Source: a virus
Length of the DNA stretch: 33,576 bases
Strand: one strand, 5' to 3'
Virus record (IMG/VR): IMGVR_UViG_3300024431_000020
Location: 1 to 33,576 of that record
The position numbers and the translations under genes were made by a program. The notes under the pieces were generated by a model. The model made no database searches. It worked only from the letters and a program-made list of their open reading frames with translations, and had not been told where the DNA came from. Positions 1-33,561 of this stretch are shown in pieces (the stretch's first letter is position 1; each line of letters starts with the position of its first letter).

Positions 1-27
1 CTCCCCATCCTCATACCAATGGTGTGA
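1..27 (+). CDS. possible 3' end of an upstream gene (partial)
   Basis: Frame 1 is open from the window edge and ends at the TGA at 25-27, one base before the ATG of the next small ORF at 29. Only eight codons are visible, so nothing can be said about the product. The tight spacing fits the packed organisation seen elsewhere in the window. It may equally be chance reading frame. Confidence 0.2.
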   Translation, partial: LPILIPMV

Positions 28-28
28 C

Positions 29-130
29 ATGGATACCAATATGCTGATGGTGGGCATACTGCTGGGCCTCATCGGAGTCGCTGGGCTTAGCGTGATGGCA
101 TACACCTTATGGAGTGAACATGGACAGTGA
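29..130 (+). CDS. 33-aa single-span membrane peptide
   Basis: This ORF encodes 33 residues: a short N-terminus, one uninterrupted hydrophobic stretch (about residues 5-26, rich in Leu, Ile, Gly and Val), and a short polar tail ending SEHGQ. It would sit in the host inner membrane. No family is recognised. The stop overlaps the start of the next ORF at 120, which fits translational coupling. No good ribosome binding site precedes the ATG at 29, and the frame stays open to the window edge, so the true start may lie upstream and the gene may be truncated here. Small membrane peptides are common in phage early and middle regions, but function cannot be inferred. Confidence 0.45.
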   Translation: MDTNMLMVGILLGLIGVAGLSVMAYTLWSEHGQ

Positions 131-323
131 GAGAGATAGAAGGATCAGGTCTGCGGGTGTACTGCAATCTGTGATCGCAAGCGGTGCCCCCGTAAATGAG
201 TGGGTGGTCCGTTCTAAGTATGGCCTCCGCATCGTCAACTACTTGACGGCGGGGCTGGGAGGGGTGAGGCTGAAGGCCCCCAAGATTCCTTCGGCATTGG
301 AGAATGACAATGGCAACAACTAA
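120..323 (+). CDS. small hypothetical protein, 67 aa
   Basis: The protein has a charged N-terminus (MDSERDRR), then a mixed helical-looking region, and ends in an Asn-rich tail. The ATG at 120 has GGAG at 111-114 with a 5-base spacer. A GTG at 114 in the same frame is possible but overlaps that site. The gene overlaps the upstream peptide gene by 11 bases and the SSB gene by 14 bases. I do not recognise a family. Its place immediately before the SSB gene suggests co-expression with the replication module, and nothing more can be said. Confidence 0.5.
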   Translation: MDSERDRRIRSAGVLQSVIASGAPVNEWVVRSKYGLRIVNYLTAGLGGVRLKAPKIPSALENDNGNN

Positions 324-9233: not shown

Positions 9234-10793
9234 ATGCCCGAACTGCCCATGAGTTTCAAGGATAGGTTCGACCACTTCGACCAACTCCGAAAGGAGGGGC
9301 TGGAGAGGAAACGTGAACACGCCATGTTGACGATGCCTTCTCTGCTCCCCCCGGAGGGACGGGCATCCAACACTGCACTTGATGTACCCTACAACTCGCT
9401 TTCAGCGGAGGGTATCAACAACCTTGCATCCCGCATCATGTCCGTGGTCTTCCCCCTCAACGGCCAGAGCGTCTTCGAGATCCTAGTCGAAGCACCGTTC
9501 AAGCCAGAGGGCAAAGACGACTCGGAGTTGGACGCGGTGTTCACCTCATTCGAGCAGAGTGTCATGGATACGCTCGCACCCACCAATATGCGGGCCTCGA
9601 TCAACCTTGCGTATCGTCACCTGATCGCCATTGGCGATGTGATGCTGCACATGGACGACAACTTCAACTTCAGACTCTTCCGAGCCGACCAATATGTGGT
9701 CCGCCGTAAGCATGAGGGAAGCTGGGAAGAGATCATCATTCGTGAGGCGGTGAATGCCGAGTGGCATCCAGAGTTGAAAGCCCTCCCCAAGGGGGATACC
9801 AACGCCACGGGCCTCAGGGAAGATGGTACGCAGGAGCAATGGGAGCCCCTGTACACTCAGATTATGAAGCACCCTGATGGCAGCGTGTGCGTAGAGCAGG
9901 AGTTCCGGGGCCACAAGGTGCCCGGCACAAAAGAGAAGCATCTGGTATCACCCTACATGCCCGCTCGCTGGTCATCCCTGATCGGTGAGTCATACGGCGT
10001 GTCTCTGGTGGAAGATATGTTCGGTGACATCCGAACGCTCGACTCCCTCAGTAAGGCACTGCTGGACGGCGTGATGCTCAACGCAGAGTACCGCTGGATT
10101 CTGAATCCCGGTGGCATGCTTGAGCTACAGGACTTCCTCGACTCCATCAACGGAGACACCCTCGCGGGTGGCAGGGAAGACCTCACCCCGATGTCCTTCC
10201 AGAACAACGCTCAGGTGGCCGCTGCCCAAGCCGCAGTCGCCCACCGCGAAGCCATCCTTGGTCGCCGCTTCCTGATGAACAGTGCCGTGCAGCCTACGGG
10301 TGATCGCGTCACGGCCCGTCAGGTTACGCTGCTGGCACAGGAACTGGAGCAGGCACTCGGCGGCATCCTGTCGCTGGCCTCTACGGAGCTACAGGAGCCC
10401 ATCATTCGTCGTGCCATGTTCATCATGGGTAAGCGAGGGTTGCTGGACAGCCGGATCATCGAACAGATCGATGAGCAAGGCGGATTCCTCAAGCTACGCC
10501 TCAGGGCGGGGCTGGAGATTCTCAACCGAGAGGCTGAGAAAGAGAACCTTGAACGAGCAATCGGTATCATGACGAACATGAGCGATGCAATGCTCGAAGG
10601 TGCGAATATGCACATCATTGGCCGCGACTGGTGGCAGGCACAGGGCCTCGACGCCAAGGGCCGGTGGAAGACCGACGAGGAAATGGAGCAGGCGAGGCAG
10701 CAACGTCAGCAGGCAGCCCAGCAGCAGCAAGTCATGCAAGCTGGTCTACAGGCGGGTGTTGCTCAAGCCTCCGAACAAGGAGATAGTCAGTGA
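9234..10793 (+). CDS. portal / head-tail connector protein (T7 gp8-like)
   Basis: The 519-aa product matches T7 gp8 in size (536 aa), place and sequence style: an N-terminal DVPYNSLSAEGINNLASRI and VVFPLNGQSVFEI, a middle SPYMPARWSSLIGESYGVSL, and a late RVTARQVTLLAQELEQALGG. A Gln-rich C-terminal tail follows. Twelve copies form the ring at the capsid vertex through which DNA is packaged and ejected; it binds the terminase, scaffold and tail tube. AAAGGAG precedes the ATG at 9234 by a good spacing. The stop overlaps the GTG of the scaffold gene. Confidence 0.93.
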   Translation: MPELPMSFKDRFDHFDQLRKEGLERKREHAMLTMPSLLPPEGRASNTALDVPYNSLSAEGINNLASRIMSVVFPLNGQSVFEILVEAPFKPEGKDDSELDAVFTSFEQSVMDTLAPTNMRASINLAYRHLIAIGDVMLHMDDNFNFRLFRADQYVVRRKHEGSWEEIIIREAVNAEWHPELKALPKGDTNATGLREDGTQEQWEPLYTQIMKHPDGSVCVEQEFRGHKVPGTKEKHLVSPYMPARWSSLIGESYGVSLVEDMFGDIRTLDSLSKALLDGVMLNAEYRWILNPGGMLELQDFLDSINGDTLAGGREDLTPMSFQNNAQVAAAQAAVAHREAILGRRFLMNSAVQPTGDRVTARQVTLLAQELEQALGGILSLASTELQEPIIRRAMFIMGKRGLLDSRIIEQIDEQGGFLKLRLRAGLEILNREAEKENLERAIGIMTNMSDAMLEGANMHIIGRDWWQAQGLDAKGRWKTDEEMEQARQQRQQAAQQQQVMQAGLQAGVAQASEQGDSQ

Positions 10794-30214: not shown

Positions 30215-30534
30215 TGGCATCAGCTAGAATCGACGGACCCGCAGGGGCCACCACCACGGTTATCGCGGCCCCCGGCGTAGGTAAGAAGATCCGCATCCAC
30301 GCCATCTTCGCGGCGACGAACCATACCACAGGCAGCTTCCGGCTGCACTCAACTACCGTGGATGTTATTGGTGATGCAGGAATCCCAGTGAACAACACCA
30401 CGATTGCACGGGAGGTCATCATGCCGTACTCGCCGTCCCCTTGGGCAGAGCTTGCGGATAATGAGGCACTCTCAGTAACCACTGTGGCCTCCACCTGTGT
30501 GGGGCGTGTCATCTTCCAAACGGTGGATGCCTAA
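30214..30534 (+). CDS. small beta-rich hypothetical protein, 106 aa
   Basis: The sequence reads as a compact beta-sandwich: TTTVIAAPGVGKKIRIHAIF, then SFRLHSTTVDVIGDAG, and a C-terminal ADNEALSVTTVASTCVGRVI. I recall this layout (VIAAP-x-x-GKKIRV) in small proteins of several phages, often without assigned function. It sits between the holin candidate and the small terminase, overlapping both neighbours by one base (TGATG, TAATG). A minor virion or decoration role is possible; nothing catalytic is seen. Confidence 0.6.
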   Translation: MASARIDGPAGATTTVIAAPGVGKKIRIHAIFAATNHTTGSFRLHSTTVDVIGDAGIPVNNTTIAREVIMPYSPSPWAELADNEALSVTTVASTCVGRVIFQTVDA

Positions 30535-30821
30535 TGGGATCACCGCAGGAATGGGACAGCCTAGACCAGCCCGGCCTGTCAGCCGAGGAACTGGAAGCCA
30601 AGCTTCATGCTGGGGCAGCCCGACAGATGCTCAAGTGGATCGAGGCCGAAGAGGTCACCGCTGGGCAGATGCAGGCTATCCTCCGCTTCCTCAAGGACAA
30701 CGATGTGACAGCCCTTCCAATACCCGGCTCGCAGATGGAGCGGATTGCGGCCAAGCTGTCCCTCCCATTTAGGATCACCGATGCTGGCACAGAAGCTGAG
30801 TCACCTCGATCCGACGACTGA
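30534..30821 (+). CDS. small terminase subunit (T7 gp18-like)
   Basis: The 95-aa protein lies immediately upstream of, and overlaps by 41 bases, the large terminase gene, as T7 gp18 (89 aa) precedes gp19. It is helical and contains MQAILRFLKDNDVTALPIPG, a segment characteristic of T7-type small terminases. The C-terminus is acidic (TDAGTEAESPRSDD). It should oligomerise and recognise phage DNA for packaging and hand it to the large subunit. Its ATG overlaps the preceding stop (TAATG). Confidence 0.83.
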   Translation: MGSPQEWDSLDQPGLSAEELEAKLHAGAARQMLKWIEAEEVTAGQMQAILRFLKDNDVTALPIPGSQMERIAAKLSLPFRITDAGTEAESPRSDD

Positions 30822-32556
30822 CCCCTTTCACGACTTCCGTAACTTCGCCTACCTGATCTTCACGGAGATCCTCAAGTTCGGGGAGCCTCACGCCATCCAG
30901 TACGACATCATGGACTGGATGCGGGGCCTTCCCGAATCGCAGGACGGCATCCGCCGAGGACAGGTACAGGCCATGCGAGGATGTGGGAAGTCCGTCATCT
31001 CTTGTATATACTGCTGCTGGCTCTGGTACTGCAATCCAACGATCCGCGTCTGCCTCATCTGCTCCAACGGAGTAAAGGCAGAAGAGTCCGCGTCGTTGGT
31101 GAAGCAGATCATGGATGCTTGCGAACTCCTCCACCACCTGCGACCTGACCCTGAAAGCGATGTGGTACTCCACCACGGCAAGAAGGTTCGGGGGTTGGCG
31201 AAGGAGCAGAACAAGATGACGAGGTTCGATGTCCGGGGAGCAGGCCCCGGCAAGGACCCATCGTTCGCATGTTACCCGCTGTTCGGAGGTTGGACCGGCT
31301 CCCACCCCGACATCATCATCCCCGACGACATCGAGATCCCGGAGAACTCAGGGACCCCCGGCAAGCGTCGGAAGATCATCAAGAAGGTTCAGGAGTGCGA
31401 GTCCCTCATCCTTGAGGGCGGCACCATCATGTACATGGGCACCCCGCAGACGGAGGAGTCCGTGTACTTCGAGTTGGACAACAAGGGCTACGCCATCCGC
31501 AAGTGGCCCGCTGAACTGGTGGACCCCGCTGGGGAGCAGGCCGAGTATGTCTCGCCCATGCTTCTGCAACGGGTACACGACGGGGAGTCCCCCGGTGACC
31601 CCTCCTACCCGGAGAGGTTCCCCCGTGAACGCCTCATCGAGAAGAAGGCCAAGGGCCTCGCGTACTACGCTCTCCAGATGCTGCTGGACCCCAGCTACTC
31701 GGACGCCGCACGATTCCCCCTCAAGCTGAGGGACCTGATCATATTCGACGCTCCGAGCGACTGTGCCCCCACCAACATCTACTACGGCGGAATCCTCAAG
31801 CGTATCCCCGATCTCCACCCGTGGGGACTGGGAGAGGACTACTTCTGTGGTCCCGGCCACATAGAGCCCCAGTACGAGAAGTACACCGACCTCCTCATGT
31901 ACATTGACCCCGCAGGCGGTGGGGCCGACAGCATAGGCTACTGTGTCGCGGGAGTGCTCAATGGGATCATCTACATCCTCGACTGCGGCGGAATGCGGGG
32001 TGGGAACTCCGCAACCCTCATGGAGAAGCTCTCACGGCTGGGATTCAAGCACGGCGTCAAGAAGTACATCGTGGAGTCCAACTGGGGAGGCAGCAAGACA
32101 GAAAGTGCCTACGCCCAACTCCTACAGCCCATTCTCATCAAATGGAACGGGCAAGTGAGCGTGGAGCTAAATTACGTCACTGGGCAGAAGGAAACTCGCA
32201 TCCTCGACACCTTGGAGCCCATCGTGGGGTCCCACCGACTGGTGGTACACTCCCGATGCGTTTATCGCAAGGATGACGACGACAGACGCAATTTCCTCTA
32301 CCAGTTCACTCATCTCAACCGGGACCGTGGTGCCCTTGGCTACGACGACGAGATTGATGCCTGCTACGGTGCAGTGACCCAATTCGTGTCCCATGTAGTC
32401 CTCGATCCCTCCAAGAGGGAGGCCGAGAGACATATAGCCGCCTCCGTCGCTACTGCCGAGCAGTGGGACAAGGAAATGGCGGGGAAGGGCAGGAAGTCAT
32501 GGCGAAAGGGCCGAGAAAGCCTGAGGCTGTCAAAAGGAAGATGGAAGAGAGCCTAG
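30781..32556 (+). CDS. large terminase subunit, packaging ATPase-nuclease (T7 gp19-like)
   Basis: The 591-aa product matches T7 gp19 (586 aa). The ATPase half has a Walker A-type RGCGKS (residues 66-71) and a Walker B-type IIIPDD (Asp182/Asp183). The RNase H-like nuclease half has LLMYIDPAGGG with Asp376, then VESNWGG, and ends with DDEIDA (522-527). It pumps concatemeric DNA into the procapsid through the portal and cuts at genome ends. The ATG at 30781 is chosen, preceded by AGGATC; an in-frame start at 30745 would add residues unlike the family. Its C-terminal tail is strongly basic, and it overlaps the next small gene by 58 bases. Confidence 0.95.
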   Translation: MLAQKLSHLDPTTDPFHDFRNFAYLIFTEILKFGEPHAIQYDIMDWMRGLPESQDGIRRGQVQAMRGCGKSVISCIYCCWLWYCNPTIRVCLICSNGVKAEESASLVKQIMDACELLHHLRPDPESDVVLHHGKKVRGLAKEQNKMTRFDVRGAGPGKDPSFACYPLFGGWTGSHPDIIIPDDIEIPENSGTPGKRRKIIKKVQECESLILEGGTIMYMGTPQTEESVYFELDNKGYAIRKWPAELVDPAGEQAEYVSPMLLQRVHDGESPGDPSYPERFPRERLIEKKAKGLAYYALQMLLDPSYSDAARFPLKLRDLIIFDAPSDCAPTNIYYGGILKRIPDLHPWGLGEDYFCGPGHIEPQYEKYTDLLMYIDPAGGGADSIGYCVAGVLNGIIYILDCGGMRGGNSATLMEKLSRLGFKHGVKKYIVESNWGGSKTESAYAQLLQPILIKWNGQVSVELNYVTGQKETRILDTLEPIVGSHRLVVHSRCVYRKDDDDRRNFLYQFTHLNRDRGALGYDDEIDACYGAVTQFVSHVVLDPSKREAERHIAASVATAEQWDKEMAGKGRKSWRKGRESLRLSKGRWKRA

Positions 32557-32672
32557 AGACCCGCCGAGCCCACATGATGGTGCTTGGGGTCGAAACTGGA
32601 CGCCCCGACCTCCAGAAGTTCTTCGAGTTGTGCCTAAGGGCACATGCAATCGACACACTAAAGGAATTATGA
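32499..32672 (+). CDS. hypothetical protein, 57 aa
   Basis: AGGAA lies 3 bases before this ATG, and the ORF continues 116 bases beyond the terminase stop to an ATGA overlap with the next gene, which supports it. The product is basic at the N-terminus (MAKGPRKPEAVKRKMEESLE) and helical throughout, ending LQKFFELCLRAHAIDTLKEL. I do not recognise it. Post-terminase small genes in T7-like phages (such as 19.5) are poorly understood. Confidence 0.55.
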   Translation: MAKGPRKPEAVKRKMEESLETRRAHMMVLGVETGRPDLQKFFELCLRAHAIDTLKEL

Positions 32673-32855: not shown

Positions 32856-33248
32856 ATGGCACACCGACAACCCCTTGCAACGCAAGGAAAACCCCCAACT
32901 GACACCGCAGGTGTCGTGGACAAGGTAAAACGGAGTGGACTGTCTGCCGAAGAGACCGTTGCGAAGAGTTTGGCCGAGGGCCGAGGGGAAGTGGACCCTA
33001 ACGAGGTCGTGCAGCCCGCCCCGGTGGTGAAGGACCCCCGCGTGGACCCAAGGGAGCCTTTCTTGACCGCTGGCGAGTCAAGAGACTTCAATCAGGCCCT
33101 TTCCATGTGGTTGCTGGGGGAAACCCTCAGCGGACGCGAACAACCCGACCACGACACCCAAGCGACGGTGCGGACTGGTCTGGTGGACACCTTGATGGGC
33201 CAACGGGTCAATCAAGGGGGTGCGTTCATGCAATTCCTCGGAATGTAG
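32856..33248 (+). CDS. hypothetical protein, 130 aa, last gene before the right end
   Basis: GGAGGAG directly upstream gives a strong start at the ATG at 32856. The N-terminal 90 residues are polar, with Thr, Asp and Pro (RQPLATQGKPPTDTAGVVDK and PAPVVKDPRVDPREP), and probably flexible. The C-terminal 40 residues contain a Trp-Leu-Leu helix (FNQALSMWLLGETLSG) and a Gly/Met end (GGAFMQFLGM). No function is recognised. It is the last ORF on the + strand; only the repeat-rich non-coding end follows. Confidence 0.6.
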   Translation: MAHRQPLATQGKPPTDTAGVVDKVKRSGLSAEETVAKSLAEGRGEVDPNEVVQPAPVVKDPRVDPREPFLTAGESRDFNQALSMWLLGETLSGREQPDHDTQATVRTGLVDTLMGQRVNQGGAFMQFLGM

Positions 33249-33273
33249 GATCGACTGGGGGTAGGGTGTGGAA

Positions 33274-33305
33274 GCGGGGGGATCTGAACAAGGATCGCCC
33301 CCCGC
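33274..33305 (+). other. strong GC hairpin after the last gene
   Basis: GCGGGGGG (33274-33281) plus ATC pairs with GAT (33293-33295) and CCCCCCGC (33298-33305), with a 2-base bulge and an 8-base loop. No T-run follows, so it is not a standard intrinsic terminator; it could stall replication or transcription. Confidence 0.7.
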
Positions 33306-33326: not shown

Positions 33327-33561
33327 GTCCGATAACCTGCAACCGGCAGAATCGCTACAGATCGGACAACCGGGGGCCGCGTTATCGGACGTTCCGCCGC
33401 CCGCCGCAGGGTCCGATAACCTTTCCGGGGGGATGGTCCGATAATCTCACGGGGGTCCGATAATCAGCGGCTGGCACGCCGAGGCATGGTCCGATAACCT
33501 GCCTTTTTCGTCCGATAATAACCGCCCCCCTGCCGATCCAGCGTCCAGCGAGTTATCGGAC
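33327..33561 (+). repeat. cluster of GTCCGATAA repeats in both orientations
   Basis: Exact GTCCGATAA occurs on the + strand starting at 33327, 33411, 33436, 33455, 33489 and 33510, and on the - strand (as TTATCGGAC) at 33382-33390 and 33553-33561. A partial - copy (ATCGGAC) is at 33361-33367. The copies are followed by C or T. The pair 33381-33390 and 33411-33420 forms a perfect 10-bp inverted repeat. Spacing is irregular (19 to 43 bases among the later copies). I noticed no other copy in the window. Confidence 0.95.
33482..33508 (+). terminator. probable intrinsic terminator containing one repeat copy
   Basis: AGGCA (33482-33486) pairs with TGCCT (33500-33504) and GGT (33488-33490) with ACC (33497-33499), with one bulged T and a CCGATA loop. 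The hairpin is followed by TTTT. It is the first T-run hairpin after the late operon, so it could end late transcription. The loop and inner stem are formed by the repeat copy at 33489. Confidence 0.5.

What the first reader, a model, noticed from the sequence alone, without database searches (positions are those of the whole stretch)
33327..33561. Eight-copy GTCCGATAA cluster at the non-coding right end
A 9-base word appears eight times exactly, plus one partial, within 235 bases and in both orientations, including a perfect 10-bp inverted repeat. I saw no copy in the preceding 33 kb. Random expectation for a 9-mer in 235 bases is far below one. T7 has arrays of a short repeat beside its terminal repeats, but of different sequence. 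This may be the binding array of a replication initiator, a terminase-recognition or concatemer-processing site, or an operator for a host or phage regulator. The imperfect palindrome GGTCCGATAACC in some copies favours a DNA-binding protein.
Basis: partly seen in the sequence, partly recalled or inferred. Interest (0 to 1): 0.78.

Follow-up and report, generated by a model that had tools for sequence, protein, structure and literature searches.

The report
Phage array of a shared 9-base word
Near one end of a T7-like phage genome lies a non-coding stretch packed with the nine-base word GTCCGATAA, and the same word forms arrays in unrelated phages and beside a family of Schlafen-like bacterial genes, which suggests a shared but still unidentified DNA-binding protein.

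Summary
In detail: eight exact GTCCGATAA in 235 bp, none elsewhere in the window (0.12 expected). But the 'right end' is a contig break. A 49,997-bp contig, 99.98% identical over 33.3 kb, continues the array to 15 exact copies over 1.8 kb, most in a 1.3-kb non-coding gap between the end of the late genes and a 428-bp terminal repeat.

The phage is an autographivirus (T7-like). Relatives down to about 30% TerL identity carry arrays of the same word downstream of terL. The word also forms arrays in unrelated phages: 63 viral stretches hold three close direct copies, against 3 for a matched control word. Copies are spaced with the DNA helix, which points to a protein-binding array.

The same word forms arrays in bacterial genomes. 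In 38 of 111 hits it lies just behind, inside or near a Schlafen AlbA_2/HATPase/winged-helix gene, a family linked to phage defence. No phage-encoded binder was found.

Best reading: the array is bound by a host protein, perhaps of that Schlafen type, possibly as a decoy. The binding array is well supported; ligand and function are inferred. Terminase site, replication origin, XerC arms and resolvase sites were considered and are not supported or remain open.

The parts
33327..33335 (+). array site 1, GTCCGATAA (CGTCCGATAACC)
33361..33367 (-). partial copy, core ATCGGAC only
33382..33390 (-). array site 2 (11-bp inverted match to site 1)
33411..33419 (+). array site 3
33436..33444 (+). array site 4
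33455..33463 (+). array site 5
33489..33497 (+). array site 6
33510..33518 (+). array site 7, preceded by TGCCTTTTTCG, which also precedes a site in relative L348
33553..33561 (-). array site 8; the array continues beyond the window in IMGVR_UViG_3300020235_000072 (L009 7583-9364)
33251..33263 (+). conserved promoter-like element TCGACTGGGGGTA, identical in L348; a one-mismatch copy lies inside both terminal repeats of the 50-kb contig
   Evidence: role inferred
33274..33305 (+). G+C-rich hairpin between the promoter-like element and the array
   Evidence: MFE of the 81-nt stretch -41.7 kcal/mol, z -1.9
30745..32556 (+). terminase large subunit (PHROG 38)
30534..30821 (+). terminase small subunit (PHROG 891)
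32463..32672 (+). small basic ORF, no PHROG match; absent from the terL-array interval of L348
32675..32854 (+). small basic ORF (59 aa), no PHROG match
32856..33248 (+). last ORF before the array, no PHROG match

Best explanation
The cluster is the first half of a protein-binding array of at least 15 exact asymmetric sites, (A)(C/G)GTCCGATAA(C/T), in the non-coding region between the end of the late genes and the terminal repeat of a T7-like phage. The protein that fills it is most likely not phage-encoded but made by the host. The best candidate is a DNA-binding protein of the bacterial Schlafen AlbA_2 / HATPase_c_4 / winged-helix kind (COG2865), because the same word forms short arrays at the 3' end of those genes in many phyla. 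On this reading the phage array soaks up (titrates) that protein during infection. Shown here: the array, its position, its conservation in relatives, its helical spacing, the reuse of the word in unrelated phages, and its link to AlbA_2 genes. Inferred: that a protein binds, which protein it is, and that titration is the purpose.
For: 8 copies vs 0.12 expected; 15 in the 50-kb contig, all in 1.8 kb. Same word downstream of terL in relatives at 52%, 51% and about 30% TerL identity. 63 viral stretches with three close direct copies vs 3 for a control word of the same dinucleotide make-up, and those 3 are perfect tandem repeats. Many sites lie in long ORF-poor gaps. After removing identical spacers, same-strand spacing has a 10-bp period (R 0.29, p about 5e-9) and inverted pairs a period near 10.5-11 bp (R about 0.58, p 1e-5 to 3e-5). 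In bacteria 38 of 111 three-copy hits share one AlbA_2/HATPase_c_4/HTH protein: 24 arrays begin within 36 nt of its stop codon (51 sense and 36 antisense copies, so not a peptide repeat) and 12 lie inside the ORF. AlbA_2 genes without this word sometimes carry other repeated words at the same places. No PF04326 in 50 array-carrying viral records, so those phages do not make the protein themselves. Schlafen RNases with a C-terminal histidine-kinase fold and wHTH are reported beside BREX loci, with a preprint cited for anti-phage defence (PMC12839542).
Against: GTCCGATAA arrays with 21-bp spacing occur in Bacillaceae genomes in which PF04326 was not found, so AlbA_2 cannot be the only binder. 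Flanks differ: phage sites avoid T before the word, while AlbA_2 arrays mostly have ATGTCCGATAA. Spacing geometry differs: about 10n+5 bp in phages, 10-11 and 21 bp in bacteria. The hosts of the array phages are unknown, so no phage-host pair links the two arrays. The other AlbA_2 words are mostly 12-bp in-frame repeats that could be peptide linkers, and many AlbA_2 genes there have none.
Confidence: 0.33

Rival explanations
1. Terminal array for replication, concatemer processing or packaging, working like the SRL/SRR short-repeat arrays of T7 and filled by phage proteins.
For: Lies between terL and a 428-bp terminal repeat, behind a promoter-like element that also occurs in the repeat. Copies lie downstream of T7-type TerL in all loci that hold one, about 8 independent lineages. 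The L023 group has a related upstream element, a G+C-rich stretch and four copies in conserved arrangement. Isolate Rhizobium phage Pasto has an irregular array of a different word (GCACCCATCGGC) at its left end.
Against: Same word in YuA-like and 100-180 kb phages and in bacteria. No copies near the left end, so no SRL counterpart. Physical ends were not mapped.
Confidence: 0.25
2. Binding array for another, unidentified host protein (a global regulator or nucleoid protein), used as an operator cluster or to exploit host physiology.
For: Word constant across phyla, in Bacillaceae, Bacteroidales, Lentisphaerae, Treponema and one Asgard genome; some of those genomes lack PF04326.
Against: Only one other of 197 further Bacteroidota genomes has two copies within 24 bp, so arrays are sporadic, unlike a core regulon. 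No candidate protein.
Confidence: 0.25
3. Array of XerC half-sites (the XerC arm of dif) recruiting Xer recombinase.
For: ACGTCCGATAA and AGGTCCGATAA are the XerC arms of dif in Anaeromyxobacter and Myxococcus (PMC2731167). The phage flank consensus A-S-word-Y agrees. One large-phage lineage encodes a XerC/D-like recombinase of about 295 aa.
Against: Tolerated variants do not follow dif arm variation (Spearman 0.20, p 0.33) and no XerD arm stands at the right distance. Word also constant in Bacillaceae, whose dif arm differs (B. subtilis ACTTCCTAGAA). G001 has no tyrosine recombinase match. The match was found by a literature search over many sites.
Confidence: 0.09
4. Minisatellite-like sequence drift without function.
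For: Bacterial genomes with this word often carry several variable-length tandem arrays of it.
Against: In the phages spacers are unrelated while the word stays exact, single-mismatch variants are concentrated at certain positions, spacing follows the helix, and position is conserved in diverged relatives.
Confidence: 0.05

Closest known systems
T7 SRL/SRR short-repeat arrays beside the terminal repeats (from memory)
   Same: Short repeated word in non-coding DNA near the end of an autographivirus genome, between the terL side and the terminal repeat
   Different: Different word (T7: CCTAAAG, from memory); no counterpart near the left end; same word reused in unrelated phages and in bacteria
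3' arrays of bacterial Schlafen AlbA_2 / HATPase_c_4 / HTH genes (COG2865)
   Same: Identical nine-base word in multi-copy arrays, both orientations, in non-coding DNA
   Different: Tight 10-11 or 21-bp spacing, mostly 3-5 copies, flank T/A instead of C-G/C-T; described here, not found in the papers searched
dif XerC arm of Myxococcus/Anaeromyxobacter
   Same: Contains the exact word with matching flanks
   Different: Needs a XerD arm 6 bp away; absent in the arrays
Iteron-type replication origins
   Same: Clustered repeats of one word with helical spacing
   Different: No adjacent initiator gene identified
Stoperators of cluster A mycobacteriophages (from memory)
   Same: Asymmetric repeated operator-like word in a phage
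   Different: Those are scattered through the genome; these are confined to 1.8 kb

Membership tests
T7 SRL/SRR-type terminal array | array between terL/right-end promoter and right terminal repeat | tested here: met
   promoter and repeat inferred from sequence, ends not mapped
T7 SRL/SRR-type terminal array | matching array beside the left terminal repeat | tested here: not met
   no copies outside the last 3 kb
T7 SRL/SRR-type terminal array | word CCTAAAG | tested here: not met
   the word is GTCCGATAA
Binding site of AlbA_2/HATPase_c_4/HTH (COG2865) proteins | same word arrayed at the gene | tested here: met
   36 of 38 arrays inside the ORF or within 36 nt 3' of its stop
Binding site of AlbA_2/HATPase_c_4/HTH (COG2865) proteins | array present only where the protein is encoded | tested here: not met
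   several Bacillaceae genomes with arrays but no PF04326 match
Binding site of AlbA_2/HATPase_c_4/HTH (COG2865) proteins | protein binds the word | not testable with these tools
   needs EMSA or pull-down
dif / XerCD site | XerC arm core sequence | tested here: met
   (delta-proteobacterial dif)
dif / XerCD site | XerD arm 6 bp from the XerC arm | tested here: not met
   no TTAT excess at +15
dif / XerCD site | variation as in dif XerC arms | tested here: not met
   Spearman 0.20, p 0.33
Tn3-type res site (serine resolvase) | serine recombinase encoded by the element | tested here: not met
   0 of 50 array viruses
Iteron replication origin | A+T-rich unwinding region in the array | tested here: inconclusive
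   lowest 100-bp GC 0.46 at 49021, outside the dense part; about 0.49-0.50 inside it
Iteron replication origin | adjacent initiator gene | tested here: inconclusive
   no match, but small unknown ORFs remain
Operator of a phage-encoded regulator | shared DNA-binding protein encoded near arrays | tested here: not met
   none shared across 110 proteins of 22 viral loci; distant genes not covered

The most novel reading that the evidence does not exclude
Unrelated phages have independently acquired decoy arrays of the DNA word that bacterial Schlafen AlbA_2-type proteins place at their own genes, a DNA-based counter-measure that titrates a host defence or regulatory protein.
Probability: 0.25. 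Interest if true: 0.92.

Novelty: new variant of a known kind. Interest (0 to 1): 0.68.

Why it matters
A single nine-base word that forms arrays in unrelated phages, in bacteria of many phyla and at Schlafen-type genes implies a widespread DNA-binding activity that the papers searched here do not describe. If the ligand is a Schlafen-type protein, phages would be fighting it with DNA sites instead of a protein, and the array would give a direct handle on how such proteins are controlled. If it is another protein, the array is a ready-made bait to find it.

Tried and rejected
Serine resolvase (Tn3 res half-site resemblance recalled from memory): no resolvase gene in 50 array viruses. XerC arms: attractive sequence match, set aside on variant tolerance and missing XerD arm. 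Peptide repeat as the general cause: 34 bacterial hits are indeed in-frame repeats with all close spacings a multiple of 3, but the 3' AlbA_2 arrays run in both orientations with 10-11 bp steps and the phage arrays here are non-coding. RptR defence-island repressor: its site is TAGCTA. Isolate phages with the array, to learn the host: 12 near isolates checked, none has it. Tandem query against plasmids: no match. Printed word in the literature: almost only primer-like hits plus the dif paper. Phage-encoded AlbA_2: none. Search for papers on phage DNA decoys: nothing on point.

Full report
What is there. The window holds eight exact copies of GTCCGATAA between 33327 and 33561, six forward and two reverse, where shuffled sequence gives 0.12 in the whole window. 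Spacers between copies are not repeated. The inverted match between the first two copies is 11 bp.

The window is cut off. A search with the terminase large subunit found contig IMGVR_UViG_3300020235_000072 (49,997 bp). It is 99.98% identical over 33.3 kb of the window and 100% over the last 7.8 kb, and it continues past the window end. There the array goes on to 15 exact copies in 1.8 kb, 14 of them inside a 1.3-kb stretch without an ORF of 120 aa or more, with further degenerate CCGATAA copies. The rest of the 50 kb holds none. The contig begins and ends with the same 428 bp, longer than usual assembler overlaps, so probably a real terminal repeat; physical ends were not mapped.

What carries it. 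PHROG matches give a T7-like set: ssDNA-binding protein, primase/helicase, DNA polymerase, ligase, exonuclease, head-tail adaptor, scaffold, capsid, small and large terminase. The longer contig adds an 832-aa ORF that reads like a T7-type RNA polymerase (by eye). Nearest isolates by TerL and polymerase are mostly Autographiviridae at about 30-34% protein identity. So the phage is an autographivirus-like phage of unknown host.

Order at the end of the late genes. terL, three small unknown ORFs, a promoter-like TCGACTGGGGGTA, a G+C-rich hairpin, the array, then the terminal repeat. The 13-base element is identical in relative L348 and occurs with one mismatch inside both terminal repeats; the hairpin stretch folds at -41.7 kcal/mol (z -1.9). 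The L348/L257 relative (TerL 51% identical) has the same order without the small ORFs, and its array is more degenerate, with core CCGATAAC. Every fetched locus that contains a T7-type TerL has copies downstream of it, about eight independent lineages (one also has a copy just inside the end of terL). These loci were picked for having the word, but not for its side. A second group (L023 and others) has four copies in a conserved layout behind a related element.

The word is not private to this phage. A scan for two copies within 30 bp returned at least 119 viral stretches, and 63 hold three such direct copies. A control word with the same dinucleotides gave 3, all perfect 15-bp tandem repeats. 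Carriers include YuA-like siphoviruses (TerL 53% identical to YuA) and phages of 70-180 kb with up to about 40 copies. The near isolates checked lack it, so arrays are sporadic. Flank consensus is A/n, C or G, GTCCGATAA, C or T. One-mismatch variants are 28-fold in excess in array regions (630 against 22.6 expected), but not elsewhere in the same loci (192 against 216), and concentrate at a few positions.

Helical spacing. After removing identical spacers, same-strand neighbours (n 230) follow a 10-bp period with peaks near 15, 25, 34 and 44 bp (R 0.29, p about 5e-9); inverted pairs (n 32) follow about 10.5-11 bp (p 1e-5 to 3e-5). Several periods were tried, and related phages are not fully independent, so the p values are rough. 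This is what a row of bound proteins on one helix would give.

Bacteria. The three-copy pattern has 111 hits in 84,980 genomes; by a rough estimate of mine chance alone would give well under one. 34 are in-frame coding repeats with all close spacings multiples of three. 38 hits share one protein with Schlafen AlbA_2 (PF04326, 3 of 3 members scanned) and, in one of those three, also HATPase_c_4 and a DeoR-type HTH over the cut-off. In 24 of the 38 the array starts no more than 36 nt behind the stop codon (three overlap it), with 51 sense and 36 antisense copies; in 12 it lies inside the ORF. Some AlbA_2 genes of other loci show other repeated words in the same places, for example TTTGGCCCG four times at 33-34 bp behind one gene. 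The remaining hits include intergenic arrays in Bacillaceae with 21-bp steps, some in genomes without a PF04326 match. An Asgard archaeal chromosome has an irregular array beside CTP synthase.

Which protein? None of 50 array viruses encodes PF04326 or a serine resolvase. 110 proteins near arrays of 22 viral loci share no DNA-binding family. Hence a host protein is more likely than a phage one, though distant or unknown phage genes are not excluded. The Schlafen-type protein is the only family found here that is linked to the word. A 2026 comparative study of BREX loci reports Schlafen RNases with a C-terminal histidine-kinase fold and wHTH beside defence genes and cites a preprint on anti-phage activity (PMC12839542). 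The titration idea joins these facts but is inference.

XerC. The word is the core of the XerC arm of dif in Myxococcus and Anaeromyxobacter (PMC2731167), and one large-phage lineage encodes a XerC/D-like recombinase. But no XerD arm follows, tolerated variants do not track dif, and the word is constant in bacteria with other dif arms (PMC3025954 for B. subtilis). I keep it as a minor rival.

Terminal function. Position argues for it, and isolate Pasto has an irregular array of another word at its left end, so end arrays with lineage-specific words may be common in this family. The reuse of one exact word in unrelated phages argues that position is not the whole story.

Verdict. A protein-binding array is well supported (about 0.85 in my judgement). 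The ligand and purpose are open; the host Schlafen-type decoy is my best single guess at 0.33.

Noticed in passing
window 1-298 vs L129-L131 (50-kb contig): The window's left 204 bases match the longer contig at only 91%, and the stretch up to 298 is replaced, while the remaining 33.3 kb is 99.98% identical: a small local gene swap or indel.
   Followed up: partly
50-kb contig (reverse of G001) 9344-10045: A 233-aa ORF with trypsin-like motifs (TAAHV ... GNSGGPV) directly before the RNA polymerase ORF; unusual for a T7-like phage.
   Followed up: no
L132, L138, L142, L166, L169, L177, L201, L228 and others: Bacterial Schlafen AlbA_2/HATPase/HTH genes end in tandem GTCCGATAA arrays, in either orientation, across many phyla and in Methanoculleus (L148, L216).
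   Followed up: partly
L272, L274, L275, L292, L299: AlbA_2 genes without GTCCGATAA carry arrays of other words behind or inside the gene (TTTGGCCCG, CACCCCGGA, GGTAAAGT, GGTTGGTA, GTGGTCAG), as if each protein had its own word.
   Followed up: partly
L133, L176, L184, L191, L224: Bacillaceae intergenic arrays of GTCCGATAA at exact 21-bp steps with unrelated spacers, in genomes partly without AlbA_2.
   Followed up: partly
L349-L354: Large array phages encode a XerC/D-like recombinase next to an ORF that reads like a ClpP protease.
   Followed up: no
L171 4091-5604: A Heimdallarchaeota chromosome (MAG) has 14 irregularly spaced copies beside CTP synthase.
   Followed up: partly
L361 187-455 (Rhizobium phage Pasto left end): Irregular array of GCACCCATCGGC in non-coding DNA near the left end of an isolated autographivirus.
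   Followed up: partly
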